Below the pieces are notes generated by a model. That model ran no database searches. It was not told the DNA's origin and saw only the letters and a list, made by a program, of their open reading frames with translations. A DNA stretch of 34,436 nucleotides from Saliphagus infecundisoli (GTDB lineage Archaea; Halobacteriota; Halobacteria; Halobacteriales; Natrialbaceae): positions 1-34,436 of the forward strand of contig NZ_JAIWHV010000032.1 in the NCBI RefSeq assembly GCF_020177375.1, written 5' to 3'. A program made the position numbers and the translations under genes. Shown piece by piece: positions 1,275-18,121 of the stretch; position 1 is the first letter of the stretch, and each line of letters starts with the position of its first letter.

Positions 1275-1279
1275 CGCAA

Positions 1280-2110
1280 TCAGGACTCCGCCGGCTCCAG
1301 CGTCGCTGGCTCGACGTTGATCCGGAGGCGATACGTACTGTCGGTCGATCCGGTGTCGGGCCGCGTCGGGTCCACTGGGGAATAGCCACTCGTGAACGAC
1401 GCGACGAGTTCCTCGCGGGTGGGGAGATTGATTCCGAGCTGGTCGGCGAGGTAGACGATTCGCTTAGTCGCGGCGCCGTTATCGAGGCGCTCGAGGTACT
1501 TGCCGATGGTCCTCCAAGAACAACCCTGCTCGTCGGCGGTTCGCATCGCGATCGCGAGCTCTTGGAGGCCGCCACAGAACTCCGGGTGGTCGGCACAGTC
1601 GACGAGCGTCTTTTCGAGGTCACTGACGTGGACGGTCGTCCCCTCAATGGAGGTTGATTCGGAGCCGAAGAACTTCCTTTCGGTGACCGTCGTTACGCGG
1701 TACGGAACGCCGTGAATCTCGCGGCTCTGCGCGCGCGTCGGCGTCACGACGTACACCGTCCGGGGCACTTGTTCGGTTAGCCCGTGGTGGCTGAGCGCGC
1801 TGTAGTAGCCGATATACATCGGCTCGGCGACGTGTGCTGCGATGAGGTACTCGTGGGTCGTATAGATGGCGTCCTCGCCAGCGGCAAGCGGGATGATAAG
1901 ATACGTCCCTGGAAGAAGTCGGTCAAGCCAGCTTTTCTCGGCCAGTCGAGAGGCGATCTCCCGGGCAGTATTCGGAGCGACCTCGAGTGCCGTTTCGATG
2001 TCGTCAATCGAGATGATTTGATGACCCTCTGAAGCCAATCTCGACAGCAGACGACTCTCTCGCGTCGAAAGTCCACCCCGTTTATTTTGCGCGTCTTCTA
2101 TGGGGTTCAT
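1280..2110 (-). CDS. AbiEi-family antitoxin / transcriptional regulator
   Basis: The 276-aa partner of the downstream AbiEii toxin. AbiEi proteins carry an N-terminal winged helix that represses the operon and a C-terminal antitoxin domain. Here residues of about 12-70 form a wHTH (ALEVAPNTAREIASRLAEK is the likely recognition region), followed by the typical AbiEi middle part (YIGYYSALSHHGLTEQVPRT) and a segment VHVSDLEKTLVDC that is common in AbiEi-type regulators. The gene precedes the toxin by 5 nt, the normal antitoxin-first order. A weak TATA-like stretch lies about 20-25 nt before the ATG, so the transcript may be leaderless. Autoregulation is inferred from the family. Confidence 0.88.
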   Translation of the reverse strand: MNPIEDAQNKRGGLSTRESRLLSRLASEGHQIISIDDIETALEVAPNTAREIASRLAEKSWLDRLLPGTYLIIPLAAGEDAIYTTHEYLIAAHVAEPMYIGYYSALSHHGLTEQVPRTVYVVTPTRAQSREIHGVPYRVTTVTERKFFGSESTSIEGTTVHVSDLEKTLVDCADHPEFCGGLQELAIAMRTADEQGCSWRTIGKYLERLDNGAATKRIVYLADQLGINLPTREELVASFTSGYSPVDPTRPDTGSTDSTYRLRINVEPATLEPAES

Positions 2111-4640: not shown

Positions 4641-5040
4641 CTCTGCGAGTCGTATGGGCTGGTCGCTAACGCGACGTGAACGGAGCAGAGAACATTCGGC
4701 AAAAAGTAACTCCAAGTCCTGCGGAGACGGAGGATAGGAGTAACGGCTGGTTGGCACAGCCGTCAGTCCATCTGTTCGATTGTAGCGAGGGCAGTTTCGC
4801 CCCGCAAGAACAGGTCGTGGACTGTAAACCGTAATATCCCAACGGCGGTCGGGATTCCACGTCGTTTACGGCGTGGAGGATGTCAACCGCTCCGTTGAGG
4901 CACGTCTCACGGGCCAGATGTTCGGCAACTGCACTCCGAGTGCGCGAGGGACGATTCGAACGCCCGTCTCGGTCGTGGCACGACCGCGTATTGCCAAACT
5001 CCACTACTCGCGCATCCTCAAAGAAAAGATACGGACGGGG
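4641..5040. other. unassigned spacer, probably decayed IS material
   Basis: About 400 bp between the transposase relic and the TROVE gene. One minus-strand frame is open over about 110 codons but has an unbalanced, Ser/Arg/Cys-rich composition unlike the acidic neighbours, so it is not called as a gene. Confidence 0.3.
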
Positions 5041-6570
5041 CTAGGTCGGCTTGAACGCCTCGATCTCATCGATGATCTGCTTCGGATTCTCGGCGTGTTC
5101 GATGAACGAGAGGACGTTCTCCGACCACCCCGAGATGTTGTAGACGTTCTTGTAGCCTTCTGGCGTCACCAGGTCGCCGTAGGCCGCGAGATCGACGAGA
5201 TACAGCGCGGTGTCCGCAGACACCTTGTCCCGATACGTATCGAACGCGTCTTTGACCGTCTGGGAATCGCGGGCTGTGAACGGCGTGTTGTCCCAGATCT
5301 GCATATCGGTGAAGACGACGATACGTTCAACAGCATCCCCTCGGTCGTGGAGGTGCTTGATCGCCTTCCAGCCGTTCGTCGAGTTCCCGACGTCCTCGTC
5401 GATCGCCAACACCGCCGATTGGCGCTGCAGTACTGGCGTGTCGACGTGCATCGGAACTGTCTGGAAGTCGTCGCCGAACCCGCCGACGTCGGCACCCTGG
5501 TTGGCCAGGATCGCACCGAACAACGCACCGATCTCCTTCAGTCGGAGCGTGCTGTTCGTGGACAGCGGATGATCCATCGATCCCGACAGGTCGACCGCGA
5601 CAAAGGTATCGCCGAATCCGCCAGGCACCGTCTCGACCGCGACATCTATTGCGTCTTCGAGCCAAGGCTCGACCGTCGGTGCCTGGACATCTGCGTCTTG
5701 CAGCGCGGTGTAGGCCTGGTAGTACCGGAACGGATACAGCGGCGCGTGTCGGACTGCCTCTAGGTCGAGGTGATTCACGACGGTGTCCTCCGGAACGCCG
5801 GCTTCGAGCATGTTCCGGAGGTTCCGAATCGACGCGAAGATGGGCAGCGTGTACTCGTCGTCCTCGATGAGCAGTTCCCAGGCGGCTTGGGTGTTGCCGC
5901 GGTCGGAGATGACCGTCTCCCACGTGTTCGGCGCCGGCAAGGGGTCGACGTCGGGATAGTCGTCGAGGCCGCCGCGCATGAACCGCTCGAAGAGCGCTTC
6001 CTGCTCGGCGTCGACGGGCGTGGGGTGGACGCGGTTGAAGACGTCGTGCAGCGTCACCTCACGCCGCGACAGCTCGTACTTGCCCAGCGTGTAGGCGTCG
6101 GCCATCTCCACCAGCGCGTCCTCGATCCCGCGTCGAAGCGGCCACGGCGCAGTCCCGCCGAACAGCTGATCGTGGACCGCGAGCGCGGTGGCCGTCTCGT
6201 CCATCCGCTGGATGATCGCCGGCGCCCATTCGCGGATGAGCGACTCGGGGGAGTCGTCCTTGAATCGGTCGTCGTTGGCTGCCAGTACGAGCAGCACTTG
6301 TGGGATGTCCCGTAAGTAGAGCTCCTGGCGCGCATAGGCCGCGAGCTTCAGGACGAACTCCGGGTTGTCGTTTGCGGCGGCATCGAACTGGCGAACGACA
6401 GCAGCGAGCTGTTCGTCATCGGTCTCGTAGAACGAGCCCTCCAGCAGTTGGTTGATCGTGCGCTTGTACAGTGCGAGTCGGGGGTCGGCAGGCTCGAACG
6501 CTTCCCCACCTTCGTAGTTGGTGGTCCGCGTTGCCTCCGCGACCGTTTGCTTTGGCGTGTTGAATTCCAT
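5041..6570 (-). CDS. TROVE-domain protein (Ro60/Rsr-type RNA-binding protein)
   Basis: Ro60 proteins are ring-shaped RNA-binding proteins that hold misfolded RNAs and Y RNAs; in bacteria Rsr works with YrlA-type Y RNAs and exonucleases. This 509-aa protein has the full layout: alpha-helical TROVE/HEAT ring over about residues 1-300 (NPEFVLKLAAYARQELYLRD, PQVLLVLAAN, RNLRNMLEAGVPEDTV, PLYPFRYYQAY) and a von Willebrand A domain over about 320-505 with an intact MIDAS start DLSGSM at 327-332 and VFTDMQIWD. Length is close to the usual 520-540 aa. I chose the ATG at 6570 (MEFNTPKQTV) over the in-frame codon at 6603 because relatives start this way and GGGTGAT, a good Shine-Dalgarno match, lies just before it. 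It is the first complete gene 3' of a same-strand tRNA array; tRNA-Arg ends about 115 nt upstream, so read-through transcription is likely. Confidence 0.9.
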   Translation of the reverse strand: MEFNTPKQTVAEATRTTNYEGGEAFEPADPRLALYKRTINQLLEGSFYETDDEQLAAVVRQFDAAANDNPEFVLKLAAYARQELYLRDIPQVLLVLAANDDRFKDDSPESLIREWAPAIIQRMDETATALAVHDQLFGGTAPWPLRRGIEDALVEMADAYTLGKYELSRREVTLHDVFNRVHPTPVDAEQEALFERFMRGGLDDYPDVDPLPAPNTWETVISDRGNTQAAWELLIEDDEYTLPIFASIRNLRNMLEAGVPEDTVVNHLDLEAVRHAPLYPFRYYQAYTALQDADVQAPTVEPWLEDAIDVAVETVPGGFGDTFVAVDLSGSMDHPLSTNSTLRLKEIGALFGAILANQGADVGGFGDDFQTVPMHVDTPVLQRQSAVLAIDEDVGNSTNGWKAIKHLHDRGDAVERIVVFTDMQIWDNTPFTARDSQTVKDAFDTYRDKVSADTALYLVDLAAYGDLVTPEGYKNVYNISGWSENVLSFIEHAENPKQIIDEIEAFKPT

Positions 6571-6572
6571 AC

Positions 6573-6579
6573 TATCACC
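6573..6579 (-). promoter_or_regulatory. ribosome-binding site of the TROVE gene
   Basis: GGGTGAT on the minus strand, a few nt before the ATG at 6570, contains GGTGAT, complementary to the 16S rRNA 3' end. Most genes here look leaderless, so a strong Shine-Dalgarno suggests this mRNA has a 5' leader, consistent with transcription from the upstream tRNA array. It also decides the start codon. Confidence 0.55.
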
Positions 6580-6685
6580 CGGAGTCGCAACAGGCGACTC
6601 CAATACCGGTGCTGCTCACACGCTCTGTGACCAGCGAGTATCGGGAGAGAAACTTCCCGAACCAGCCTCGCATCGCTCGGCTGGA

Positions 6686-6761
6686 CGTTCCCGGCACGAT
6701 TCGAACGTGCGACATCCCGGCTTCGAAGGCCGGTGCTCTGTCCTGGCTGAGCTACGGGAAC
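6686..6761 (-). tRNA. tRNA-Arg (anticodon TCG)
   Basis: Perfect acceptor stem GTTCCCG/CGGGAAC, D arm containing GCTC and GAGC, anticodon stem CCGGC/GCCGG with loop CTTCGAA, T arm GCACG-TTCGAAT-CGTGC, discriminator G. It is the tRNA nearest the TROVE gene. CCA is not encoded. Confidence 0.85.
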
Positions 6762-6780
6762 ACGAGTGGCCGGACAATTT

Positions 6781-6835
6781 CTGGAGCGAAAGACGGGATT
6801 CGAACCCGTAGAGTGCCATCGACGTATCGCTCCAG
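6781..6835 (-). ncRNA. tRNA-like mini-structure, candidate Y-like RNA
   Basis: A perfect 9-bp terminal helix, CTGGAGCGA paired with TCGCTCCAG, encloses a complete tRNA T arm (ACGGG-TTCGAAT-CCCGT) in only 55 nt. There is no room for D and anticodon arms. It sits between the tRNA array and the TROVE gene on the same strand. Bacterial YrlA Y RNAs combine a Ro-binding helix with a tRNA-like T-arm module, and the 3' strand CTTTCG here fits the bacterial Y-RNA pattern C-N(0-1)-UUNG as I recall it. The 5' strand (GCGATACG) matches GNCGAA only partly. It could alternatively be a decayed tRNA. Confidence 0.5.
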
Positions 6836-6891
6836 ATCGACGGCCACTGGTGACACGGCAACCGGAAAACCGTCGGAGCGCGACCGGTGTC

Positions 6892-6911
6892 GAGAGTACC
6901 CTCGTACTCTC
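6892..6911. repeat. perfect 8-bp hairpin
   Basis: GAGAGTAC and GTACTCTC pair perfectly around a 4-nt loop (GAGG on the minus strand). It lies between the degenerate tRNA-Ser and the mini-structure and could be part of the same processed RNA. No T-tract follows on the minus strand. Confidence 0.5.
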
Positions 6912-6938
6912 TTTGTCCGGGATGTTCTCGATGGACTA

Positions 6939-7026
6939 CGCCACCGACAGGATTTGAACCTGCGAGTTCCTGGCGAAGCAATGCTCCGACTCGACGGTCG
7001 CCACGTGCAGTCGGGCAACCGGTGGT
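6939..7026 (-). tRNA. degenerate tRNA-Ser-like (possible anticodon CGA)
   Basis: An 88-nt type II-sized tRNA. T arm GCAGG-TTCAAAT-CCTGT is good, the acceptor stem ACCACCG/CGGTGGC has an A1-C72 mismatch, and the discriminator is G as in the other Ser tRNAs here. A D stem TGCC/GGCG is possible but the loop lacks the usual GG. The anticodon region GTCGAGT allows CGA after U33, but the surrounding stem pairs poorly. It is probably a decayed or non-decoding tRNA. Confidence 0.55.
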
Positions 7027-7107
7027 GCGACGGGCTATGACTCCCGTTGGTGTGCTTTGCGGGCGAAGAAACGCACCACCTCGACGACCACACGCTTGGG
7101 GAAAGCC

Positions 7108-7133
7108 GACCGTGACAGCGTCACGGATCCGTG
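7108..7133. repeat. overlapping palindromes
   Basis: CCGTGAC and GTCACGG pair around a 3-nt loop, and the overlapping CACGGATCCGTG is a perfect 12-nt palindrome, so two hairpins are mutually exclusive. The site lies in the 158-bp spacer between the Ser-like tRNA and tRNA-Glu(TTC), where no other tRNA is visible. Confidence 0.4.
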
Positions 7134-7184
7134 GCTGCCCGCTATGTCAGACACGGAAAACGTTGTCAGGGCCAGCCCCCCGAG

Positions 7185-7260
7185 TGCTCCCGAGGGGAAT
7201 CGAACCCCTGGCCTCCACCTTGAAAGGGTGGCGTCTCTCGCCAACGGAGACTCCGGGAGC
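7185..7260 (-). tRNA. tRNA-Glu (anticodon TTC)
   Basis: Perfect acceptor GCTCCCG/CGGGAGC, D stem TCTC/GAGA, anticodon stem CCACC/GGTGG with loop CTTTCAA, T arm AGGGG-TTCGATT-CCCCT, discriminator A. Its D-arm region (AGTCTCCGTTGGCGAGAGAC) closely resembles that of tRNA-Gln at 9419-9494, which suggests duplication within the array. Confidence 0.88.
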
Positions 7261-7307
7261 GCTGTAGGGAAGAAATCAAGCACCGAGTTACGGCGGACAC
7301 GCACGGA

Positions 7308-7712
7308 TTATCGCCGGCGTTCGAAACCCTCGAGTTGCCCGTGCGTAAACGTCACTCGATACGTGACGAGTGTATCGAGATTCTCGAAGGAGTGTGTGAG
7401 CTCGAAGCGGCCGTGGTAGTCGTCTCGTTCGATCCAGCCGTCGTGGACTCGGTTCCGACAGCCGGCCATATAGAGGAGATCTTCCTCGTCGACGTCGTCA
7501 CGGCTCGCGTATGGTCGGTCTTCCGGCGGGACCGCTTCGGTGTGCCACTCCTCTTCGAAGAGATGACCATCCGCCGTAATCCGAAATGTGGTCATGGTGG
7601 GTCGACCGATGCCTTTCGTCTGCCAGTCGACGTCCTCGGCAGGAGTAATCCCTTCGGGGTACTCCGGTAGGTGGACGTCGTCGTAGAGTTCGACTGTATC
7701 GAATAGTCCCAT
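7308..7712 (-). CDS. hypothetical protein within the tRNA array
   Basis: A 134-aa acidic protein that I do not recognise. It starts MGLFDTVELYDDVHLPEYPE, an opening common in small phage and provirus proteins, and is rich in aromatic and acidic residues. It is predicted soluble, with alternating strand-like segments (TTFRITADGHLFEEEWHTE; YHGRFELTHSFENL; YRVTFTHGQLEGF) that suggest a small beta fold. The ATG lies 12 nt after the 3' end of tRNA-Met, so endonucleolytic maturation of that tRNA would release an mRNA with a very short leader. It is inside the array and on the same strand, hence probably part of the same transcription unit as TROVE. Confidence 0.7.
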   Translation of the reverse strand: MGLFDTVELYDDVHLPEYPEGITPAEDVDWQTKGIGRPTMTTFRITADGHLFEEEWHTEAVPPEDRPYASRDDVDEEDLLYMAGCRNRVHDGWIERDDYHGRFELTHSFENLDTLVTYRVTFTHGQLEGFERRR

Positions 7713-7724
7713 TGTTGTCCTTCA

Positions 7725-7795
7725 TTGCGGGACCAGGAGTCGAACCTGGATCTCGGGGATATGAGCCCCGTGGACTGCCATTATCCTATCCCGCA
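7725..7795 (-). tRNA. tRNA-Met (anticodon CAT), initiator-like
   Basis: Acceptor TGCGGGA/TCCCGCA, short D arm with GGA/TCC, anticodon stem CGGGG/CCCCG with loop CTCATAT, T arm CCAGG-TTCGACT-CCTGG, discriminator A. Three G-C pairs stacked on the anticodon loop and a weak 1-72 pair (T-A) are initiator tRNA hallmarks. A lysidine/agmatidine-type tRNA-Ile2 also reads CAT and cannot be excluded from sequence. Confidence 0.8.
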
Positions 7796-7899
7796 GCACC
7801 ACAATCCGGAACTCACTCAGGGGCATCTCTCATTTCTCCACAGCTGTCCGTCCCTCAGTCTAGTCGTCTGGAAGTGAGAGGTCTCGGACTGTTGGAGAA

Positions 7900-7972
7900 T
7901 GCTCCAGCCCGGATTCGAACCGGGGGTTCGGCCCTGAGAGGGCCGTGAGTTTGGCCGCTACTCCACTGGAGC
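7900..7972 (-). tRNA. tRNA-Glu (anticodon CTC)
   Basis: Perfect acceptor GCTCCAG/CTGGAGC, D stem GAGT/ACTC, anticodon stem CGGCC/GGCCG with loop CTCTCAG, T arm CCCGG-TTCGAAT-CCGGG, discriminator A. A second Glu isoacceptor in the array, different from the TTC one. Confidence 0.85.
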
Positions 7973-8006
7973 GGGTTGGCCTCGTCTGGAAAGGATCATC
8001 GGCCAG

Positions 8007-8073
8007 TGGGACGGGCAGGATTCGAACCTGCGTGTTCTCGTTATAAGTGAGATGAAGGAACTCTCACCGTCGC
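8007..8073 (-). tRNA. degenerate tRNA-Ile-like (anticodon TAT)
   Basis: T arm GCAGG-TTCGAAT-CCTGC is perfect and the acceptor GCGACGG/CCGTCCC pairs at 6 of 7 positions. The anticodon stem TCTCA/CGAGA has an A-C mismatch next to a loop CTTATAA (anticodon TAT). Only 14 nt separate acceptor and anticodon stem, and the sole D-stem option (GAGA/TCTC) competes with the anticodon stem. At 67 nt it probably lacks a D arm. Confidence 0.5.
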
Positions 8074-8137
8074 ACCGGGTCTCCGGTGAAAATTCGGCGA
8101 GAGTGTGTGAATGCCAGGCTCTTCCACCGTCCCGCAG

Positions 8138-8209
8138 TCTCCCCGGCACGACTCGAACGTGCGTCTCCTCCTCTACAGGGAGGCATCGTAGCCGCTAGAC
8201 CACAGGGAG
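8138..8209 (-). tRNA. tRNA-Tyr (anticodon GTA)
   Basis: Acceptor CTCCCTG/CGGGGAG, anticodon stem CCTCC/GGAGG with loop CTGTAGA, T arm GCACG-TTCGAGT-CGTGC, discriminator A. The C1-G72 pair with A73 is the known archaeal/eukaryotic TyrRS identity set, which supports function. Only 4 nt separate it from tRNA-Leu(CAG). Confidence 0.82.
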
Positions 8210-8213
8210 AAAA

Positions 8214-8296
8214 TGTCGCCGCGAGGATTCGAACCTCGGCAGGACCTACGCCAGCGGTTCTGAACCGCTTCCTGTTGGCCACTTGAGTACGGCGAC
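8214..8296 (-). tRNA. tRNA-Leu (anticodon CAG)
   Basis: Type II tRNA with perfect acceptor GTCGCCG/CGGCGAC, anticodon stem AGCGG/CCGCT with loop TTCAGAA, long variable arm, T arm CGAGG-TTCGAAT-CCTCG, discriminator A as expected for Leu. Confidence 0.85.
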
Positions 8297-8338
8297 GTAA
8301 CGTTGAAGCGGGAATTATCTACCGGCACGATGGCCGGA

Positions 8339-8420
8339 TGCCGCCACCAGGATTCGAACCTGGGAAGGACTAACCACACGGGTCTCGATCGTGTCCGTTC
8401 GACCTCTCTGGCATGGCAGC
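8339..8420 (-). tRNA. tRNA-Leu-like (probable anticodon GAG), atypical
   Basis: Type II tRNA with acceptor GCTGCCA/TGGCGGC (one T-G wobble), T arm CCAGG-TTCGAAT-CCTGG and discriminator A, the Leu state. The anticodon stem CACGA/CCGTG has an A-C mismatch, and the loop TCGAGAC has C instead of the universal T at position 33 if GAG is the anticodon. Reading CGA with T33 breaks the stem. Probably altered or non-decoding. Confidence 0.6.
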
Positions 8421-8467
8421 GCAATTCGAGAATCGCCAGCGACTCTGCGAATCACTTCGGCACGCAG

Positions 8468-8553
8468 CGGCGGGAGAGCGATTTGAACACTCGTATCCTT
8501 GCGGACGCTGCGGTTCCAACGCAGTCCCTTGACCAAGCTAAGGAAACCCCGCC
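8468..8553 (-). tRNA. tRNA-Ser (anticodon GGA)
   Basis: Type II tRNA: acceptor GGCGGGG/TCCCGCC, D stem CCTT/AAGG, anticodon stem CTGCG/CGCAG with loop TTGGAAC, long variable arm, T arm GAGTG-TTCAAAT-CGCTC (one mismatch-like G-C offset), discriminator G. Two nt separate it from the next tRNA-Ser. Confidence 0.82.
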
Positions 8554-8555
8554 AA

Positions 8556-8637
8556 CGGTGAGACGGAGAGTCGACCTCCGAAGCCTCGCGGCTCTCGGTT
8601 TCAAACCGAGCGCGGTCGCCTATCCCGATGTCTCACC
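8556..8637 (-). tRNA. tRNA-Ser (anticodon TGA), unusual T loop
   Basis: Perfect acceptor GGTGAGA/TCTCACC, anticodon stem CTCGG/CCGAG with loop TTTGAAA, type II variable arm, discriminator G. The T arm is CGGAG-GTCGACT-CTCCG, so position 54 is G instead of T, which would remove the usual T54-A58 pair. Confidence 0.75.
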
Positions 8638-8642
8638 ATCTC

Positions 8643-8660
8643 CGTCGGAACTTGCTCCGA
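8643..8660. repeat. 6-bp hairpin between tRNA-Ser and small ORF
   Basis: GTCGGA and TCCGAC pair around a 6-nt loop, just upstream (minus strand) of tRNA-Ser(TGA). The remaining spacer to the small ORF (8661-8779) shows no T arm and no gene. Confidence 0.35.
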
Positions 8661-8779
8661 CAAGCCCGCCTCGCGTTTCTCACCGGGACACCGGAAGACG
8701 CGCATTACTCCGCTTCTGACCCTTACTACCGAGGCGAATGTGCTCATCAGCACCCAGTCACGGCAGGGATGGATGGCGG

Positions 8780-8920
8780 TCACCTCGTTCCGTGGAAGTA
8801 TGCGCCGTCCTCGGTGACGCAGATTTCCACGCTTCCAATTGTGTCGATAGACGTTGTTTCACCGAGCGGGACGTGACGGAACGCTTCCTCCTCGCAGGCG
8901 GGGCAGACATTCGTTGTCAT
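8780..8920 (-). CDS. 46-aa protein with one CPxC pair
   Basis: A short acidic protein beginning MTTNVCPACEEEAFRHVPLG and ending VEICVTEDGAYFHGTR. A single CPAC pair near the N-terminus and an isolated Cys later suggest a metal-binding or dimeric zinc-ribbon half, but the second ligand pair is missing. The ATG is 2 nt beyond the 3' end of tRNA-Ser(GCT), so tRNA 3' processing would leave an almost leaderless mRNA, which haloarchaea translate well. Evidence for coding is codon-like composition and this placement; the function is unknown. Confidence 0.55.
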   Translation of the reverse strand: MTTNVCPACEEEAFRHVPLGETTSIDTIGSVEICVTEDGAYFHGTR

Positions 8921-8922
8921 GA

Positions 8923-9009
8923 CGCCGCGACCCGGATTCGAACCGGGAGACCGATAGCAGACGGCCACGGCATAGCAGGCCGCTGGGTTCCCCAATACCC
9001 AGTCGCGGC
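8923..9009 (-). tRNA. tRNA-Ser (anticodon GCT)
   Basis: Type II tRNA: perfect acceptor GCCGCGA/TCGCGGC, D stem TGGG/CCCA, anticodon stem GCGGC/GCCGT with loop CTGCTAT, long variable arm, T arm CCCGG-TTCGAAT-CCGGG, discriminator G. Four nt from tRNA-Pro. Confidence 0.85.
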
Positions 9010-9013
9010 ACAG

Positions 9014-9086
9014 TGAGCCGACGAGGATTCGAACCTCGGTCCTGTGCGCCCAAGGCACAGATCGTCGTCCGCTGGACCATCGGCTC
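9014..9086 (-). tRNA. tRNA-Pro (anticodon TGG)
   Basis: Perfect acceptor GAGCCGA/TCGGCTC, anticodon stem TGTGC/GCACA with loop CTTGGGC, T arm CGAGG-TTCGAAT-CCTCG, discriminator A. Confidence 0.85.
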
Positions 9087-9092
9087 ACTGGA

Positions 9093-9110
9093 CTGCCGAG
9101 CGTTCGGCAG
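9093..9110. repeat. 7-bp hairpin 5' of tRNA-Pro
   Basis: CTGCCGA and TCGGCAG pair perfectly around a 4-nt loop immediately before the tRNA-Pro 5' end on the minus strand. It may aid processing or separate modules of the transcript. Confidence 0.4.
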
Positions 9111-9144
9111 CTGATTCGCTATCTGTACGACTGTTTCCAACTGT

Positions 9145-9172
9145 GCAACCGCGACCGAGTAGTCGTGGTTGC
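9145..9172 (-). ncRNA. strong 11-bp hairpin inside the array
   Basis: GCAACCGCGAC at 9145-9155 pairs with GTCGTGGTTGC at 9162-9172, one G-T position, six-nt loop. It lies in the 251-bp gap between tRNA-Asp and tRNA-Pro where no T arm is found. It may be a structured RNA or processing element; no coding frame accounts for it. The same gap holds the 14-nt palindrome TGCTGGGCCCAGCA at about 9244-9257. Confidence 0.4.
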
Positions 9173-9337
9173 GCGTCTCATCGCGGGGGCGTACTTCGGG
9201 TGCTCCCGGGAATACCACACCGGCTCATGTAGGTTGCAGACCCTGCTGGGCCCAGCACCGTAGGAACGATCCAGTTGATCGCACCAACGGGCTGCCTACC
9301 TCGATGGGTATCCCCACGTGGCCACGCCACGCATCCA

Positions 9338-9411
9338 CGCCGACGCCGGGATTCGAACCCGGATCACGACCGCGACAGGGCCGTATGCTCGTCGGGTTAC
9401 ACCACGTCGGC
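9338..9411 (-). tRNA. tRNA-Asp (anticodon GTC)
   Basis: Perfect acceptor GCCGACG/CGTCGGC, anticodon stem CGGCC/GGTCG with loop CTGTCGC, T arm CCGGG-TTCGAAT-CCCGG, discriminator G, as in archaeal tRNA-Asp. The D-arm start TGGTGTAA and anticodon arm resemble the haloarchaeal chromosomal tRNA-Asp as I recall it, but the stems differ. Confidence 0.85.
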
Positions 9412-9418
9412 ACCGTAG

Positions 9419-9494
9419 TCGCCCCGGCCGGAATCGAACCGGCGACCTCCGGATTCAAAGTCCGGCGTCCCTCGCCAGCGGAGACTCCGGGGCT
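9419..9494 (-). tRNA. tRNA-Gln (anticodon TTG)
   Basis: Anticodon stem CCGGA/TCCGG with loop CTTTGAA, T arm GCCGG-TTCGATT-CCGGC, acceptor AGCCCCG/CGGGGCG with an A1-G72 mismatch, discriminator A. It is the first tRNA of the array in the direction of transcription and 7 nt from tRNA-Asp. Confidence 0.83.
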
Positions 9495-12066: not shown

Positions 12067-14070
12067 TCAAAACCCGGCCTTTTCCAGTTCGTCGAGAAAC
12101 GCCGGGCGGTTCGAGTGCTTGTCTTTCAGGAAGTCGAGAAACTCATCGAATCGCTCTTCGGGGACGAGTTGCTGCATCTCTTCGAGGTGGTCAGCGACCG
12201 TTCGGTAGTGACGCCGCCCCGTCTCACCAGCGGCGAACGGGACGACCAGTTCGCGGTAGAACTCGAAGTACTCGGCCGGAGCGAAAGTTGCGACTGGATC
12301 CCGATACTGGCGAACTAACGAGAGATTTTCGCTGTCTTTCAGTTCCGCAAACCCGTTTTCGAGGTCGGCTTCGTGGACGTACATGGCGATGAGTTTCTGC
12401 CGGTTGTCCGCGAACTGTCGCTCGAATTCCTCGTAGAGTGACTGCCACTCTTGGTCATCACAGATGTCTTTCATATCGTCGTAGGCTGCCCACTCGGTAT
12501 GATCGAGAAACAACTGTTTCAGCGTGCGACGGTACGCCTCTGTGTCACGCTCGCGGTAGAGGTCGGCAGCGAGCCAGCGAAGGTCAGTCGTCGACCGGAA
12601 TGTCTCGATTCCATCTTCGAGAACCTCGATTGCACGGTCTTCGTTCCCCTCCTCGATCAACCGCTCGGCGTACTGTTTACAGAAGCGGGTGCTTTCGAGA
12701 TAGACCTCCTCGTACAGTGACGGCAGCGCCGCTTCCTCGCCGAGTTCCCTGAGGATATAGATGTACGTCGAGATGAGACTCCGTACGCGAAGCGATGAGG
12801 ATATTTCTGTCTCTCCAGCAGTCGACTCGGTCGGGTCGACATCTGCGGTGTGTGTCTCGTCAGTTGTCGGGTCGTCGATACGCAGTCTCTCGAAGGCATC
12901 GCCGACGAAGTACTCCAGTTTTAGGGTCCCGACCGCTAGGTGTTGGATGTCGAGCGTCCCACCAGTGAAGTCGTCGGGGGTGAGCGGGCCGTCGGTGAAA
13001 TCAGAAGTATAGAGAACGTCGTCCGTTCGCTCACGGTGGTGTTCCGTGGGTTCTTCCATCGATTGTTCGTCTGCCGATACTTCGACAGGGTCATCGCTGG
13101 CGGATGCGTCTTGTCGGCCGCCAGCCCCAGCGGATGTCAGTTCGCCCCCAGCTACTGCATCGAGACTGATGTTAGAGACACGCTCGTCCAGTGCGTCCAG
13201 CCAGTATTCAAGGTCGTCGGTCGTCGTACAGAGTGTTCGCAGTGCGTCGTCGTAATAATCGCTGGCGAAGCCGTGATCGGCCTCGACGAACCCTTCGCAG
13301 AGGTACTCGATGTACGGTCGCTTCTGTTCGTGGCTGTCGAGATTTTCCGCGACTGTCTCGACATACGAGTCGATGGCTCGTTCAATCTCCCGACCGTGAT
13401 ACCCGCCGCTGTCGTCGATCCGGTTCAGGTTCTCACGAATCGCTTCGGTAATCGCCCGGTAGATGTCCGTCGCCGTCTCGACGTTACCACGCTCGCGGTG
13501 TGTCTCGGCGAGGTCGTAATACTGCGAGAAATCGATGTGCGTGTCGTAGTCGATCAGCCCACCGCGGCCGGCAGCACTGTCGAATAGTTGGCCGATCTCC
13601 TGTTTGTAGTCGTAGACGGTTTTGCCCGTGTCTTCACCCGCGAACGCGACGAGGCGGTCGCGGATGTCGCGGTCGTCCTCGATAATCTCCAGCAGGAAGG
13701 ATCGAAGCTCGTCGGCTGCCATGTCCTCGACCACTGCTTCGATGTCTACCGTCTCCGACAGAGCGCTATCTGGACTGGCGTCAGTCGCACTGTCCGTGTC
13801 GGTATCGCGGTCCTCGACGGCCAGCAGAACCGCAACGATGTGTTTGCAGTCACCCGCGTAGTCGTACGGACAACTACAGCGGGTGCGAACAGTATCGTCC
13901 GCAATGTCGACAGCCACCTCGTAGTAGTTCGAGCCACGAACGGTGGCCCTGACCTCCCCGCCGTCGATGTCGAGTTCCTGAACACGCTCCTGGTGGTAGT
14001 AGTTCACACCCCGCTCGAAGGACTGTTCGGTACAGAGCGACCGAATTTCTTCGCGGGTCGGGTAGTCCAT
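12067..14070 (-). CDS. SWIM zinc-finger protein with long alpha-helical tail
   Basis: SWIM domains bind zinc and usually nucleic acid or protein; they occur with SNF2 or DEAD helicases and in recombination complexes. In this 667-aa protein the ligands are C65, C67, C75 and H77 (CSCPYDYAGDCKH), inside the usual beta framework (VRATVRGSNYYEVAVDI). After an acidic linker come DELRSFLLEIIEDDRDIRDR and a long helical, TPR/HEAT-like region (GNVETATDIYRAITEAI; EDRAIEVLEDGIETF; EEFERQFADNRQKL). Residues of about 270-370 are low-complexity acidic. The N-terminal 250 residues are paralogous to the 266-aa SWIM protein at 15265-16065. It is the last gene of a same-strand run with CcbP and pRiA4b genes, 54 nt behind CcbP. 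Confidence 0.88.
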   Translation of the reverse strand: MDYPTREEIRSLCTEQSFERGVNYYHQERVQELDIDGGEVRATVRGSNYYEVAVDIADDTVRTRCSCPYDYAGDCKHIVAVLLAVEDRDTDTDSATDASPDSALSETVDIEAVVEDMAADELRSFLLEIIEDDRDIRDRLVAFAGEDTGKTVYDYKQEIGQLFDSAAGRGGLIDYDTHIDFSQYYDLAETHRERGNVETATDIYRAITEAIRENLNRIDDSGGYHGREIERAIDSYVETVAENLDSHEQKRPYIEYLCEGFVEADHGFASDYYDDALRTLCTTTDDLEYWLDALDERVSNISLDAVAGGELTSAGAGGRQDASASDDPVEVSADEQSMEEPTEHHRERTDDVLYTSDFTDGPLTPDDFTGGTLDIQHLAVGTLKLEYFVGDAFERLRIDDPTTDETHTADVDPTESTAGETEISSSLRVRSLISTYIYILRELGEEAALPSLYEEVYLESTRFCKQYAERLIEEGNEDRAIEVLEDGIETFRSTTDLRWLAADLYRERDTEAYRRTLKQLFLDHTEWAAYDDMKDICDDQEWQSLYEEFERQFADNRQKLIAMYVHEADLENGFAELKDSENLSLVRQYRDPVATFAPAEYFEFYRELVVPFAAGETGRRHYRTVADHLEEMQQLVPEERFDEFLDFLKDKHSNRPAFLDELEKAGF

Positions 14071-14124
14071 GTGTTGTCGACGACTACCGTGCTGGTCCCT
14101 GAAAACGTGGCGCTACTCGCATAT

Positions 14125-14493
14125 TCAGCCCAGTCGCCCACCGTCGCCGTTCCAGTAGTGCCAGTCGTCGACTGCGTCCCGTGTATTCTGATCCACGTCG
14201 AGCACCTCAAGCTGTGATAGTGGCACACCGAATTCCCGGTCCATCCACTCCACGAGGACGAACATCTCCCTGCTGCTGACGACCTCATCCGTCATTCCGA
14301 CGACACGCGCTTCTTCGCCCTCTCGCAGCGGTGAGATTGTTCGTTCCTCGATACATCGCGCCTGAAATGGAACGGTCATCTCGCGTTCGAGGTAATAGCA
14401 CCAGCTGATCGCCTGCTCATCTGCGGTGTAGGCGTCGGTGAGTATCTCTCTCCGAATGCGTTTGTTTCGCTCTTCGTCTGTTTCCCCGGTCAT
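14125..14493 (-). CDS. CcbP-like calcium-binding protein family
   Basis: A 122-aa protein matching the CcbP family (PF11535 type), named for the cyanobacterial Ca2+-binding protein CcbP. Matching blocks are ILTDAYTADEQAISWCYYLE, VPFQARCIEERTISPLREGE, VVGMTDEVVSSREMFVLVEW and a closing GVPLSQLEVLDVDQNT, in the family order. The fold is a small beta barrel with acidic surface sites; calcium binding by this member is not shown by sequence. Its ATG overlaps the stop of the upstream pRiA4b gene (ATGA), so the two are translationally coupled. In many genomes such genes accompany pRiA4b-ORF3 and SWIM proteins as accessory genes; that is an impression, not a count. Confidence 0.8.
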   Translation of the reverse strand: MTGETDEERNKRIRREILTDAYTADEQAISWCYYLEREMTVPFQARCIEERTISPLREGEEARVVGMTDEVVSSREMFVLVEWMDREFGVPLSQLEVLDVDQNTRDAVDDWHYWNGDGGRLG

Positions 14494-15248
14494 TGTGGTC
14501 GTTTCTCCCTGACAATCGCGGCCGTCTCGGTCGATGCGATCACGTCGATATCGTCGAGAACCCCGTCAAGTTCGTCAGGCTCGTACACCTCCTTGACGAT
14601 ACAGTAGTAGTGCGATGGCGTGCCGAAGTCGTAAACCAGACTGAGTCTGTCGCCTTCCCAGAGTGCGCCACGCTCGGCGACCTCTCCAACCGTCATCTCG
14701 CTGGCTTTCGTGTCCGATCGGTCACCTGCTTGCTCGTACTGGTGGTCGGGAAGCATGTTGATGCTGGAATCCAGATACTCGTCTTCGAGGCCGTACATCC
14801 GGAGGTGGAAATCGTCGAGCGTGGTGAACCGACACACGAGTCTGTCCAGTTCTGCCATCGTCGTCTCGGGTCCCACGACGATATCGTACCACTCGTCTCG
14901 CGCACGACCTTTCTGCTTCCAGCGGAGCCGATACCCGATGGTTCCGATCCGCTCGGATACGTCGTCGTCAGCTCGTTCCTGTTCGTCCGCCAGTGCGTCG
15001 CGTGTATTCGACCAGCAATACGAGCAGATTTCGCCCGGTGCGTCGCCCTCGAACCCCTCTTTGTCGATTTCGTTCTGGGTGACGAATTCCGAAAGCGGGA
15101 CTCGTCGGTATCGCGGGTGCCGGCTGCTTCTACTACACATCTTCTCACCGGGAGCGCTAGGGCTAAGCGAGAAGCGATCGTCGTCCTCCAACGCACCCGC
15201 ATCCATATCGATGATGTGTGCCACTGTTCCACTCCCAATCTCGATCAC
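14490..15248 (-). CDS. plasmid pRiA4b ORF-3-like protein
   Basis: About 252 aa when started at the GTG at 15248. The C-terminal half is a pRiA4b ORF-3 domain (PF07929 type): IGYRLRWKQKGRARDEWYDI, TMAELDRLVCRFTTLDDFHL, MYGLEDEY and LSLVYDFGTPSHYYCIVKEV with its typical Y-D-F-G. The N-terminal half carries three Cys (C38, C75, C78; ICSYCW), a possible incomplete metal site. The frame is open upstream to 15458, but that part overlaps the SWIM gene and has antisense-like composition; the GTG lies 16 nt after the SWIM stop. The domain's molecular function is unknown; it is frequent in mobile and defence-rich regions. Confidence 0.8.
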   Translation of the reverse strand: MIEIGSGTVAHIIDMDAGALEDDDRFSLSPSAPGEKMCSRSSRHPRYRRVPLSEFVTQNEIDKEGFEGDAPGEICSYCWSNTRDALADEQERADDDVSERIGTIGYRLRWKQKGRARDEWYDIVVGPETTMAELDRLVCRFTTLDDFHLRMYGLEDEYLDSSINMLPDHQYEQAGDRSDTKASEMTVGEVAERGALWEGDRLSLVYDFGTPSHYYCIVKEVYEPDELDGVLDDIDVIASTETAAIVREKRPQ

Positions 15249-15264
15249 AAATCGCTCTGTCGAT

Positions 15265-16065
15265 TCACTTATTGTATCGGTCCTCCAAGTTATCGAGTTC
15301 GCGCCAGAACTGATCGCTGTTAATCGGCGGCTCCGACGTTGCCCGCGCTTCCAGCACGCCCGCGTACGTGTCGAACTCCTCGGGAGTTGGGTCGGTTGCA
15401 AGGATACAGTCGGCGTAGCCTTCGATCGCGGTCTGGATGGTCCGTGCGTAGTGGTCATACGCCCCGTCGACCCAATTATATTTTTCGTCGACTTCCTCGA
15501 ACACGGCCCGATAGACGGTCGCAGCCGCTAGATACCGGTCGCGGTTACGGTACTGCTTGGCAATCTCGAAAAACCGGGAGAAGTCGATAGCGTCGTACAC
15601 GCCAGGGTCAGCGTGCTGCTCGAACAGTTGCGCGATCTCCTCTCGGTATTCCTCGACTGATTTGTGGTCGTCACCAAAGCGTGCGAGAAACTGTTCGCGC
15701 AACTCTGCGTGTCCAGCGAGTGCGTCACGGACGAATCCACGCAGGTCGTCTGCAGACACGTCTTCGAGAACCGTCTCGATGGCCTCACTTTCGTCCTGTG
15801 GCGGGTTCGCAGCGATGTCCAACAACACCGCGACGACGTGCTTGCAGTCGCCACCACCGTCGTACGGGCAGGTACACTGCGTGTCGAGGCTCCGGCCACC
15901 GAACTCGACAGTCACGTCGTAGAGGTTCGATCCGCGGACAGCCGCGGTAACGAGATTATCGAACCGATCGAGGCGTTGAATCCTCCCTTCATCGCGGTAG
16001 TTTTGCCCGCGCTCGAACACTGCATCCGTGCTCCGATCCCGGATCGTCTTCTCGTCGACGTTCAT
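15265..16065 (-). CDS. SWIM zinc-finger protein, short paralogue
   Basis: A 266-aa SWIM protein with ligands C64, C66, C74, H76 (CTCPYDGGGDCKH). It aligns over its whole length with the first 250 residues of the 667-aa protein at 12067-14070: both have AVRGSN/TVRGSN-Y before the finger, a DEL/DDLR-containing helix, a YxxEI-QLF block and a FSxxxxxA tetratricopeptide-like repeat. It lacks the long C-terminal solenoid. The ATG at 16065 (MNVDEKTIRD) is chosen over an upstream start at 16416 because the extra 117 residues overlap the helicase remnant and are not protein-like. Gene order suggests an operon with the downstream pRiA4b, CcbP and large SWIM genes. Confidence 0.87.
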   Translation of the reverse strand: MNVDEKTIRDRSTDAVFERGQNYRDEGRIQRLDRFDNLVTAAVRGSNLYDVTVEFGGRSLDTQCTCPYDGGGDCKHVVAVLLDIAANPPQDESEAIETVLEDVSADDLRGFVRDALAGHAELREQFLARFGDDHKSVEEYREEIAQLFEQHADPGVYDAIDFSRFFEIAKQYRNRDRYLAAATVYRAVFEEVDEKYNWVDGAYDHYARTIQTAIEGYADCILATDPTPEEFDTYAGVLEARATSEPPINSDQFWRELDNLEDRYNK

Positions 16066-16088
16066 ACTCCGTCGTTCGCAACGGTGGC

Positions 16089-16555
16089 CTAACGAGATTT
16101 CGGTGTCGCATCGTCGGCCTGCCGGCTTGGATCGGCCAGTGCCATCGTGAGCGTTGCCGCGAGGCGCTTGTCGAGCGGTTCGTTTGCCCGGCCACAGTGG
16201 GGAGACTGGATACAGGCCGGACAGCCGTTCGAACACCCGAAATCGGCGAGCAGTTCCCACGTGTGTTGAAAGGGCCCTCGATGTGGTCGTATCCGTTCCT
16301 GGCCAGTCCGACACCACCGCGGTAGCTATCGTAGATGAACAGCGCACTCGTCTCTGCCTGTGGATGGTCCGTCGTCGAGACGCTCCCGACATCACGCCGG
16401 TCACAGAGAATGACAAGCGGAAACGTGGCGACGAGAGCGTGCTGGGCGGCGTGGAGTCTGCCCTCGAACGACCCGGACATCGTCTGCATCAACCGTTCGA
16501 GTCCCGGTGGGAGTGTCACGTACAATGCCCGCGTTGACAGCGTTGTTTCGGGCAT
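16089..16555 (-). pseudogene. C-terminal (DUF1998-type) fragment of an Lhr/MrfA-like helicase
   Basis: MrfA/YprA-type DEAD helicases end in a zinc-binding DUF1998 domain. The minus strand reads RALYVTLPPGLERLM, LVILCDRRDVGSVSTTDHPQ and ALFIYDSYRGGVGLARNGYD, the standard approach to the zinc site. Then one base is missing near 16275; in the next frame it continues HTWELLADFGCSNGCPACIQ and SPHCGRANEPLDKRL, with the four Cys of the site (C-x3-C-x2-C-x5-C), and stops with TAG at 16089. The 5' two-thirds, including both helicase domains, are absent. It directly precedes the SWIM operon on the same strand and was probably its helicase partner. Confidence 0.75.
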
Positions 16556-16588
16556 TGGCGGGCGCTCAACCCGGCAGGTGATCGTGTA

Positions 16589-16890
16589 TTACTCAGACTG
16601 CTCGCCTTGTTCATCGTGAACGATGGCTCGAACGTCTGCCTCCGACAGCGTGGATTCGTTCCGGGCGGTGGCGAGCTCCTCACTCAATGCAGCCACTTGT
16701 TCGCGGAGCTGTCGAACCTGCTCACGAACGTCACTCGAGGTACCCTCGACCTGCTCCGGGGTCAGCACCGGCGTTGCGAGTTCGTCTGTACCCTCTCGTG
16801 AGAGTGGAATCGGCGTGAGGAGTCGTGATCGCGTCACCTGGGACGCACTCTCGACGTTCCGAGTGACGTGATCGGCGAGTTGTGCGCTGT
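16589..16890 (-). pseudogene. C-terminal fragment of an unidentified coiled-coil protein
   Basis: The minus-strand frame contains LADHVTRNVESASQVTRSRL, then LTPEQVEGTSSDVREQVRQL and a short coiled coil REQVAALSEELATARN, ending IVHDEQGEQSE. It reads like genuine haloarchaeal protein from about 16890 downward, but the upstream 35 residues are Ser/Arg-rich and antisense to the ADP-ribosylglycohydrolase fragment. I infer that the true 5' part was lost at a junction near 16880-16905. The family is unknown. Confidence 0.45.
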
Positions 16891-17294
16891 TCAACCGAAC
16901 CCTCGCGAATCTCTTGGCTGACGAAGATCGGCCGCTGGAAACAGCCAAAACGGCTCTCGAAAGCGAGCTCCCTGAAGAAGTCAACGAGGTGATTGAACTA
17001 GTCCTCGATTCACGTCATGGACCGCGAGACACTCTCGATCTCGAGAAATCGGGCTACGTCGTCACCACGCTACAGGCTGGACTCTACCACGGGCTCACGG
17101 CCGACAGCGCCGAAGAGGCGATCGTTAATGCAGTGATGATGGGTGGGGACACCGATACGATCGGGGCAGTCGCCGGTGCCGTAGCCGGGACACGCTTCGG
17201 TGTGGATGCTCTCCCTGAACGCTGGCTCGACTCCCTCGCTGTGGGAAACGAACTCGATACGCTTGCCTCTCAACTCCTCGATATCGAGGCGTAA
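16872..17294 (+). pseudogene. 3' fragment of an ADP-ribosylglycohydrolase
   Basis: ADP-ribosylglycohydrolases (DraG/ARH family, about 300 aa) remove ADP-ribose from proteins or nucleic acids. Only the last ~140 residues remain. The diagnostic block is present: EEAIVNAVMMGGDTDTIGAV followed by AGAVAGTRFGVDALPERWL, including the metal-binding GGDTDT. The N-terminal metal site and first two-thirds are missing, and no normal start exists; the frame opens after a TGA at 16869-16871. The 5' edge meets the oppositely oriented fragment at 16589-16890, so a rearrangement removed parts of both genes. Confidence 0.75.
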
Positions 17295-17328: not shown

Positions 17329-17658
17329 CTACTCGATGTACTCCCGCAGTTGTGCAACAGCTTGATCGACGACGTCCTCGTGGAGCGTTCCTTGGCGATA
17401 CGTGATCCATTCGGTCTTGATCGAGTTCACCGACCATGGGAGGATCGAACTCGATTTCGGCGCACCACCATCGATCCACAGGTCGTTCGAGAGAGGGAGT
17501 CGTTCATCGTGCCAAGTCCGAGTTGTCAGCGCCAGCGTAAGATACTGTTCGCCATGAAACGGCATCTTCCTCCGGCTGATGACTACGAACGGCCGCCTCG
17601 CGTCCCCGTCTTTGAACGGGTCCGCCGCGAACACGACGTCACCACGTTCCAAAGTCAT
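17329..17658 (-). CDS. PemK/MazF-type toxin
   Basis: A 109-aa protein of the MazF/PemK fold, usually a sequence-specific endoribonuclease. It starts MTLERGDVVFAADPFKDGDA, the typical first strands and G-D-V-V turn, then RRPFVVISRR and a late SSILPWSVNSIKTEWITYRQ segment equivalent to the S-K/Q strand that shapes the active site. Length is normal. Its ATG overlaps the stop of the upstream winged-helix gene by 4 nt (ATGA), so the pair is a translationally coupled toxin-antitoxin candidate. Activity and target are inferred from the family. Confidence 0.82.
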   Translation of the reverse strand: MTLERGDVVFAADPFKDGDARRPFVVISRRKMPFHGEQYLTLALTTRTWHDERLPLSNDLWIDGGAPKSSSILPWSVNSIKTEWITYRQGTLHEDVVDQAVAQLREYIE

Positions 17659-18005
17659 TCATCCGTGCCGTCGGCAGCGTGGGCCTTCCACTCCTCGACG
17701 TCTTCCTCCCCGAACTGATCGTCCAGCTCGTTCAGTTGCTGATGGAATCGATACGCATCGCGGACCCGCTCTTCGTCTCCGATCGCCCAGTAATCGCCCT
17801 TGTGCTGGACGAACTCGCGATCTTCGAGACGACGAAGGACGGTACTGATCGAGTTCTTCTTGACACCGGTTCCGTCGGCGATCTCAGATGGCGTGAACGC
17901 CTTGTCGTTGTTCCGAACGAGAAAGCGAACGACCTTCTCAGCGTTCGTGACCTCAGTGAGATCATCGCTGGTGCCCTCAGTGAACGTCTCGATGTCTATT
18001 GGCAT
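17655..18005 (-). CDS. winged-helix antitoxin/regulator partner of PemK/MazF
   Basis: A 116-aa protein with a MarR-like wHTH over about residues 20-80: TNAEKVVRFLVRNNDKAFTP, then SEIADGTGVKKNSISTVLRR and a wing EFVQHKGDYWAIGD. The acidic C-terminal tail (LDDQFGEEDVEEWKAHAADG) is the likely toxin-binding part. The ATG at 18005 (MPIDIETF) is preferred over 18032 because the extra nine residues are not typical and overlap the promoter region. It precedes the toxin with ATGA overlap, the usual antitoxin-first order. It differs from bacterial MazE, which is AbrB-like. Confidence 0.78.
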   Translation of the reverse strand: MPIDIETFTEGTSDDLTEVTNAEKVVRFLVRNNDKAFTPSEIADGTGVKKNSISTVLRRLEDREFVQHKGDYWAIGDEERVRDAYRFHQQLNELDDQFGEEDVEEWKAHAADGTDE

Positions 18006-18121
18006 GGCTGTCAGTACTGTCTCCGATGACAAAAGCGTTCGTTCGTCACCGAGTCACCGTTGTCACTCAAATATGTAGTCCTGTATCGAACAACAGAGAG
18101 TCTGACCACCCTACTCACCCC

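What the first reader, a model, noticed from the sequence alone, without database searches (positions are those of the whole stretch)
12067..16555. SWIM - pRiA4b - CcbP - SWIM operon behind a dead helicase tail
Four same-strand genes with tight spacing (16 nt, ATGA overlap, 54 nt) combine two paralogous SWIM proteins with two families of unknown function. The immediate upstream relic is the zinc-binding tail of an MrfA/Lhr-type helicase, a class known to partner with SWIM proteins. This looks like an undescribed multi-gene nucleic-acid-processing or defence system that has lost its motor here.
Basis: partly seen in the sequence, partly recalled or inferred. Interest (0 to 1): 0.7.

Follow-up and report, generated by a model that had tools for sequence, protein, structure and literature searches.

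The report
Decayed copy of haloarchaeal helicase-nuclease system
The four genes are the surviving part of a larger, recurrent haloarchaeal gene set that pairs a DNA-repair-type helicase with zinc-finger proteins and, in many relatives, a second helicase and nucleases; the helicase is dead here but intact elsewhere, and what the set does is untested.

Summary
In detail: four same-strand ORFs (SWIM, pRiA4b-like, CcbP, SWIM+TPR) lie behind a frameshifted remnant of a YprA/MrfA helicase. In a scan anchored only on the pRiA4b-like protein (34 loci), a SWIM gene lies directly upstream in 27 of 34, CcbP nearby in 20, and an intact YprA/MrfA helicase directly before SWIM1 in 6. The complete layout (Halapricum hydrolyticum, Haloarcula vallismortis) is P528, YprA/MrfA, SWIM1, pRiA4b-like, CcbP, XPB-Bax1 on the other strand, SWIM2, ERCC4 nuclease. 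Its XPB-Bax1 is a mobile clade separate from the housekeeping pair. The window copy has lost the helicase, XPB-Bax1 and ERCC4, yet its four ORFs show purifying selection (dN/dS 0.08-0.20). I found no description in the literature searched. Function is inferred: a helicase-nuclease machine acting on DNA, for defence or accessory repair. A test for neighbouring known defence genes was negative.

The parts
16089..16556 (-). Remnant of a YprA/MrfA-type helicase: C-terminal residues from about 632 on, frameshifted, with the Zn-binding motif CSNGCPACIQSPHC still readable in the second frame
   Evidence: MZB PF09369 E 5.7e-11; 87% and 81% identity to the intact helicase in two frames; three-frame translation and stop
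15265..16065 (-). SWIM1: 266-aa SWIM zinc-finger protein, ligands CTCPYDGGGDCKH present
   Evidence: PF04434 6e-8; PADLOC PDC-S62 5.1e-16; orthologues at 77-87% beside PRI
14490..15248 (-). PRI: pRiA4b ORF-3-like protein, 252 aa from GTG; ancestral ATG is ATA at 15272-15270
   Evidence: PF07929 E 0.01, below cut-off; about 33% identity to annotated pRiA4b ORF-3 family proteins; 10-row alignment A1
14125..14493 (-). CcbP-family calcium-binding protein, 122 aa; 4-nt overlap with PRI
   Evidence: PF11535 9.3e-33; 69-90% identity to orthologues beside PRI
12067..14070 (-). SWIM2: 667-aa SWIM plus TPR-repeat protein, paralogue of SWIM1
   Evidence: PF04434 1.4e-6, TPR_14 1e-5; PADLOC PDC-S62 2.9e-25; full-length orthologues at 66-73% in the same gene set

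Best explanation
The window holds a partly decayed copy of a mobile, modular haloarchaeal helicase-nuclease system. In its intact form a YprA/MrfA-type helicase (Walker A, DEVH and Zn motifs intact) is encoded with two SWIM zinc-finger proteins, a pRiA4b-like protein, CcbP, an accessory XPB helicase with its Bax1 nuclease, and an ERCC4 (XPF-type) nuclease. Most likely mechanism (inferred): the SWIM proteins bind nucleic acid and/or dock the helicase, the two helicases open the duplex, and Bax1 and ERCC4 cut it; pRiA4b-like and CcbP proteins are scaffolds or regulators, CcbP possibly Ca-responsive. I lean towards the substrate being foreign DNA (defence against viruses or plasmids; about 0.45) over chemically damaged host DNA (accessory repair; about 0.35). 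Shown here: gene content, order, recurrence, intact motifs, purifying selection, decay in this copy. Inferred: complex formation, order of action, biological role. In this genome the four remaining genes could at most work with partners encoded elsewhere (three other XPB-Bax1 pairs of this clade are present) or be on the way out.
For: PRI-anchored scan of genome contigs: 34 loci. Same-strand SWIM gene within 1.5 kb upstream in 27 of 34, CcbP 20, P323 19, XPB 15, Bax1 13, ERCC4 8, SWIM2 8, P528 2, intact helicase directly before SWIM1 6 of 34; many loci are cut by contig ends. Full order in L210 and L205. Two SWIM subfamilies (SWIM1, SW606) sit before PRI. Helicase: full-length match to B. subtilis YprA/MrfA, E 9.9e-123, next PDB hit 1.3e-19. 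Motifs: helicase TASGKS, DEVHE and Zn motif 7 of 7 each, XPB Walker A 14 of 14, ERCC4 ERKxxxD 5 of 5, SWIM ligands 17 of 17, 9 of 9 and 6 of 6. Window genes dN/dS 0.08-0.20; window branch alone 0.09-0.23. Accessory Bax1 clade (36 places, about 69-78% identity) distinct from the housekeeping one (about 30-38%); 18 of 36 near CcbP, 24 of 36 near any of SWIM, CcbP, P323, ZNF347 or PRI. Haloarcula sinaiiensis plasmid pHsi204 also has a truncated helicase before SWIM1, with an ISH3 transposase gene upstream. Leaning to defence: SWIM proteins match PADLOC candidate PDC-S62; patchy distribution (PRI at E<=1e-5 in 27 of 125 family genomes, of which 10 hold close relatives at 59% or more); UvrABC, not XP homologues, accounts for dark repair in Halobacterium (passages of PMC1590041).
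Against: No experiment. Flanks of system loci are not richer in PADLOC families than flanks of stand-alone SWIM1 loci: 22 families against 22, 75 ORFs each. The helicase is closest to MrfA, and the 2025 YprA preprint places YprA/MrfA proteins in the DNA-repair branch (section 5 of PMC12458937). XPB, Bax1 and ERCC4 are repair families too. Only 2 of 34 loci show P528 and 6 of 34 the helicase, so these may be optional. SWIM2 distances do not track those of SWIM1, PRI, CcbP, XPB or Bax1 (r 0.03-0.26), so SWIM2 may be exchanged separately. P323 is multi-copy in the host genome away from other system genes.
Confidence: 0.5

Rival explanations
1. Accessory DNA-repair module: the intact set opens and excises bulky lesions or cross-links in host DNA, as MrfAB does in B. 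subtilis and as XPB-Bax1 is proposed to do in archaea; plasmids carry it as a stress-tolerance cassette.
For: Every enzyme belongs to a repair family: YprA/MrfA (E 9.9e-123), XPB with damage-recognition domain, DUF790/Bax1, ERCC4. YprA/MrfA proteins form the repair branch in PMC12458937. XPB-Bax1 described as helicase-nuclease machinery for repair (abstract starts of PMC7293015 and PMC7672443). No defence enrichment in flanks.
Against: Haloarchaeal dark repair of UV lesions needs UvrABC and the authors suggest that eukaryotic-type homologues are not involved in NER (passages of PMC1590041). The host and most relatives already have a second, housekeeping-type Bax1 (113 of 125 genomes have some Bax1 match). 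The same preprint reports no conserved gene context for repair-branch YprA apart from MrfB. Patchy, mobile, frequently broken.
Confidence: 0.35
2. The neighbours are a loose collection in plasmid variable regions that repeatedly shuffle together; there is no single functional unit beyond small sub-modules (SWIM-PRI, PRI-CcbP, CcbP-XPB-Bax1).
For: Gene content varies widely between loci. XPB-Bax1 lies on the opposite strand in the first layout. SWIM2 distances do not track the rest. Plasmid replication and partition genes (Orc1/Cdc6, ParA) are common in flanks.
Against: The same order, apart from optional genes, is found on a chromosome (Salinibaculum, L194, where CcbP is interrupted) and in other genera (L195, L205, L210). 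HELI-SWIM1 and CcbP-XPB distances correlate (r 0.81 with 6 loci, 0.94 with 7 loci; species relatedness not removed).
Confidence: 0.15

Closest known systems
MrfAB / YprAB (B. subtilis mitomycin repair)
   Same: Helicase is full-length similar to YprA/MrfA with the Zn-binding domain
   Different: No MrfB exonuclease was identified in the operon; instead SWIM, pRiA4b-like, CcbP, XPB-Bax1 and ERCC4
XPB-Bax1 (archaeal helicase-nuclease pair)
   Same: XPB with damage-recognition domain beside DUF790/Bax1
   Different: A separate mobile clade, in some genomes multi-copy, often next to CcbP or SWIM genes
DISARM, Dpd, ARMADA, BRIGADE, Druantia (YprA-centred defence systems, PMC12458937)
   Same: YprA-family helicase in a conserved multi-gene set; weak SWIM N-terminal match to DpdE
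   Different: No methyltransferase, PLD nuclease or deazaguanine genes identified; helicase has no fused nuclease and is closest to MrfA
PADLOC phage-defence candidate PDC-S62
   Same: Both SWIM proteins match its N-terminal part (E 2.9e-25 and 5.1e-16)
   Different: A candidate single-gene family, not shown here to be defensive; the match covers at most the N-terminal 250 residues

Membership tests
YprA/MrfA helicase family (intact orthologues of the relic) | SF2 core with Walker A and DExH plus C-terminal MZB/DUF1998 Zn domain | tested here: met
   DEAD, Helicase_C, sub-threshold WHD_HRQ1 and MZB in one 772-aa protein; motifs 7 of 7; E 9.9e-123 to 6znp
MrfAB repair system | MrfB exonuclease partner encoded beside or fused to the helicase | tested here: not met
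   None identified among the neighbours scanned; P528 upstream has no Pfam match, so a very diverged partner is not excluded
DISARM | Separate DrmA helicase and DrmB DUF1998 genes, PLD nuclease DrmC, methyltransferase | tested here: not met
   Helicase core and MZB are in one gene; no DrmC or methyltransferase identified among the system genes of L194, L195, L205, L210
[quoted passage not shown]
   Not identified among the system genes of L194, L195, L205, L210; definitions from section 5 of PMC12458937
Dpd system | deazapurine-insertion genes and DpdE | tested here: not met
   SWIM proteins match only the first 88 positions of the 1282-position DpdE model; no such partner genes identified beside them
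pRiA4b ORF-3 family (PF07929) | Score above the Pfam gathering threshold | tested here: inconclusive
   E 0.01, 16 bits against 26.6; homologous at about 33% to proteins annotated as the family
CcbP family (PF11535) | Score above the Pfam gathering threshold | tested here: met
   113.3 bits against 21.5; calcium binding itself not testable
SWIM zinc-finger proteins (PF04434) | CxCx(n)CxH ligands and score above threshold | tested here: met
   32.5 and 28.1 bits against 19.6; ligands 17 of 17 and 9 of 9
Anti-phage defence system | Reduces virus or plasmid success | not testable with these tools
   Needs plaque or transformation assays

The most novel reading that the evidence does not exclude
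An undescribed haloarchaeal immune system in which a YprA helicase most like the repair enzyme MrfA and a dedicated mobile XPB-Bax1 pair, with an ERCC4 nuclease, are recruited by SWIM zinc-finger proteins to attack invading DNA: two excision-repair machines turned into one defence machine, with two modular layouts.
Probability: 0.35. Interest if true: 0.85.

Novelty: new variant of a known kind. Interest (0 to 1): 0.62.

Why it matters
The function of XPB-type helicases in haloarchaea is open, because UvrABC does the excision repair that these proteins were expected to do (PMC1590041 passages). Finding a mobile XPB-Bax1 clade tied to a YprA/MrfA helicase, SWIM proteins and an ERCC4 nuclease gives a concrete, cloneable gene set in cultured species with which to test repair against defence. 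It also gives MrfA-like YprA helicases a conserved gene context that the main-text parts I saw of the 2025 family survey do not report.

Tried and rejected
Structure prediction of PRI (28 sequences) and P323 (13 sequences) gave mean pLDDT 55.5 and 45.2; not used, no fold search run. PDB profile search with PRI gave nothing meaningful. Viral contigs: no relative of PRI; phage records: no match to SWIM2. Defence-island test by PADLOC on flanks: negative; many of the matches in both groups were to Cas12-type models. For that test I used 75 of 193 system-flank ORFs from 24 loci and 75 of 258 control-flank ORFs from 28 loci. The 28 stand-alone SWIM1 control loci were chosen after I had seen that they lacked the other genes, so their zero counts are descriptive, not an independent control; two of them have a weak helicase match. 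P323 as a core member: doubted, since it has four full-length copies elsewhere in the host with no other system gene found in the stretches fetched, 6.7 to 18 kb each. XPB motif D[EA][VAC]H matched 1 of 14; the XPB of L036 reads DETH instead.

No description of the set was found in the literature searches (of which 79 and 99 were on other points); the library lacks most subscription papers and supplements were not readable. Papers: PMC12458937 abstract, sections 5 and 8 and passages; PMC1590041, PMC7776575, PMC4158269, PMC6333295, PMC4983044 passages; PMC7293015 and PMC7672443 search listing with abstract starts only. The absence of ERCC4 from the host genome has no positive control in that search.
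Full report
Observation. Pfam identifies SWIM (PF04434) in both SWIM proteins, TPR_14 in SWIM2, CcbP (PF11535) strongly, and MZB (PF09369) in the remnant; the pRiA4b assignment is below threshold (E 0.01) and rests on homology to annotated family members. The remnant corresponds to residues 632-724 and 727-769 of an intact 772-aa helicase, 87% and 81% identical in two frames, so it carries a frameshift; its stop is 23 nt before the SWIM1 ATG, a spacing similar to intact operons. The sequence upstream of 16556 does not belong to the helicase by that alignment; a longer match reported (16265-16726) runs through a stop and I do not rely on its upstream part.

Host. The window is the whole of contig C25 (34,436 bp) of a 4.53-Mb, 76-contig haloarchaeal genome. 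That genome has a second SWIM1-like gene (59%) on C24, without the other system genes in the 19 kb fetched, and a more distant SWIM gene on C6. It has no intact YprA/MrfA helicase: the other matches are at 27-32% to parts of the helicase core. It has three further XPB-Bax1 pairs of the accessory clade on C5, C7 and C41, the last beside CcbP and a ZNF347-like gene.

Recurrence within the family. Among 125 genomes of the family, SWIM1 relatives occur in 50 at E<=1e-8, PRI relatives in 27 at E<=1e-5, of which 10 genomes (the window's included) hold close ones at 59% or more, and CcbP relatives in 25 at E<=1e-5. Neighbourhoods in 80 fetched stretches (analysed) show SWIM1-PRI-CcbP in G075, G104 and G109, SWIM1-PRI in G119, PRI-CcbP in G099, and another SWIM subfamily (SW606) before PRI in G005, G064 and G065. 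One SWIM1 relative of the same subclade, in G039 (72%), has no PRI in the 12 kb fetched. In G104 the intact helicase ends one contig and SWIM1 begins another; by eye the two contig ends look like the two ends of one insertion sequence with short inverted ends and a repeated CACTCACG, inserted near the end of the helicase gene (no contig overlap was found, so this is inference).

Recurrence across haloarchaea. A scan of the genome collection with the PRI alignment gave 34 loci, all haloarchaeal by title. Counts: same-strand SWIM gene within 1.5 kb upstream 27 of 34; CcbP 20; P323 19; XPB 15; Bax1 13; ERCC4 8; SWIM2 8; ZNF347 3; P528 2; intact helicase directly before SWIM1 6 (L194 Salinibaculum chromosome, L195 Halorubrum sp., L199 Halorubrum alkaliphilum, L205 Haloarcula vallismortis, L207 Haloarculaceae MAG, L210 Halapricum hydrolyticum). 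Many loci are cut by contig ends, so these are lower bounds. In a sample of 392 genomes of the phylum, strong PRI matches (E<=1e-20) occurred in 8, all in the same order. Haloarcula sinaiiensis plasmid pHsi204 has SWIM1-PRI-CcbP, XPB-Bax1 and SWIM2, and again only a truncated helicase tail before SWIM1, with an ISH3 transposase gene beyond it.

Two layouts. First: P323(-) | P528 - YprA/MrfA - SWIM1 - (extra gene in some) - PRI - CcbP - [Bax1-XPB on the other strand] - SWIM2 - (ZNF347) - ERCC4. Second: P323(-) | SW606 - PRI - C2H2/TPR protein - CcbP - XPB - Bax1; in some loci of this kind the order of blocks differs or the SWIM gene is missing. Pfam: helicase has DEAD, Helicase_C, a sub-threshold WHD_HRQ1 (25.4 bits against 27) and MZB; XPB has the damage-recognition domain and ERCC3 C-terminal domain; Bax1 is DUF790; ERCC4 PF02732; P528 and P182 have no family, P323 only a sub-threshold DUF2800 match.

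Helicase class. The intact helicase matches B. subtilis YprA/MrfA (6znp) over nearly its whole length at E 9.9e-123; the next PDB match is 1.3e-19. The YprA-family preprint PMC12458937 divides the family into a repair branch without conserved context except MrfB, and a defence branch (section 5); none of SWIM, haloarchaea, Halobacteri, XPB, ERCC4 or CcbP occurs in its main text. By similarity this helicase belongs near the repair branch, yet it has a conserved context. I built no tree.

XPB-Bax1. In the family, Bax1 matches fall into two groups: 36 places, most at 69-78% identity to the Bax1 of G104, and a second group mostly at about 30-38%, about one per genome. The first group is the accessory clade. 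Of its 36 places, 35 have XPB within 6 kb, 18 CcbP, 11 a SWIM gene and 24 at least one of SWIM, CcbP, P323, ZNF347 or PRI.

State of the window genes. Pairwise dN/dS against orthologues is 0.08-0.20 (12 comparisons). A three-sequence estimate of the window branch alone gives 0.09 (SWIM1), 0.23 (PRI), 0.09 (CcbP) and 0.16 (SWIM2), against 0.10, 0.09, 0.06 and 0.12 on the sister branches. So there is no sign of free decay, with a hint of relaxation in PRI, whose ancestral ATG is ATA here. The window PRI is closest to that of the Salinibaculum chromosome (87.6%) rather than to the same-family G075 (79.7%), which fits horizontal transfer; for SWIM1 the two are about equal (86.8% and 86.0%).

Co-inheritance. 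Protein distances correlate between helicase and SWIM1 (r 0.81, 6 loci), SWIM1 and XPB (0.87, 8), CcbP and XPB (0.94, 7), and SWIM1 and PRI (0.61, 16), but not between SWIM2 and the rest (0.03-0.26) nor P323 and SWIM1 or PRI (0.13, 0.06). Species relatedness was not removed.

Function. Defence: both SWIM proteins match the PADLOC candidate PDC-S62 and weakly DpdE; distribution is patchy and copies are often broken. Against: flanks hold no more PADLOC families than control flanks (22 and 22), and the enzymes are repair families. Repair: supported by enzyme families and the MrfA similarity; weakened by the finding that UvrABC accounts for dark repair in Halobacterium (passages of PMC1590041). 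I put defence slightly ahead, and regard the question as open.

Noticed in passing
window 4940-9494 (-): Cluster of 14 tRNA genes with a TROVE/Ro60 protein gene at 5041-6603. Already described as a kind: TROVE genes in 20 of 29 archaeal tRNA clusters (passages of PMC6333295).
   Followed up: yes
window 471-2110 (-): AbiEii/AbiEi toxin-antitoxin pair.
   Followed up: no
window 17329-18032 (-): PemK/MazF-like toxin gene next to a MarR-like HTH gene; the same HTH-PemK pair recurs near related loci such as L043, L164, L165, L238, L240.
   Followed up: partly
window 16794-17294 (+): C-terminal fragment of an ADP-ribosylglycohydrolase on the other strand; L034 has a longer one just upstream of SWIM1.
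   Followed up: partly
L157-L159 (G111, G098, G037): Gene set with two YprA-family helicases (46-47% and 31-32% to the helicase studied here) and, by eye, UvrD-, Mre11- and Rad50-like genes; may be a known or new YprA defence system.
   Followed up: no
L166 12181-14667: A different, unambiguous pRiA4b ORF-3 protein (PF07929 E 3.3e-20) directly upstream of a SWIM gene, so pRiA4b-SWIM pairing occurs with two protein subfamilies.
   Followed up: partly
L248-L252 (host contigs C74, C27, C53, C26, C44): P323 is a multi-copy family of unknown function: four full-length copies and one broken copy in the host.
   Followed up: partly
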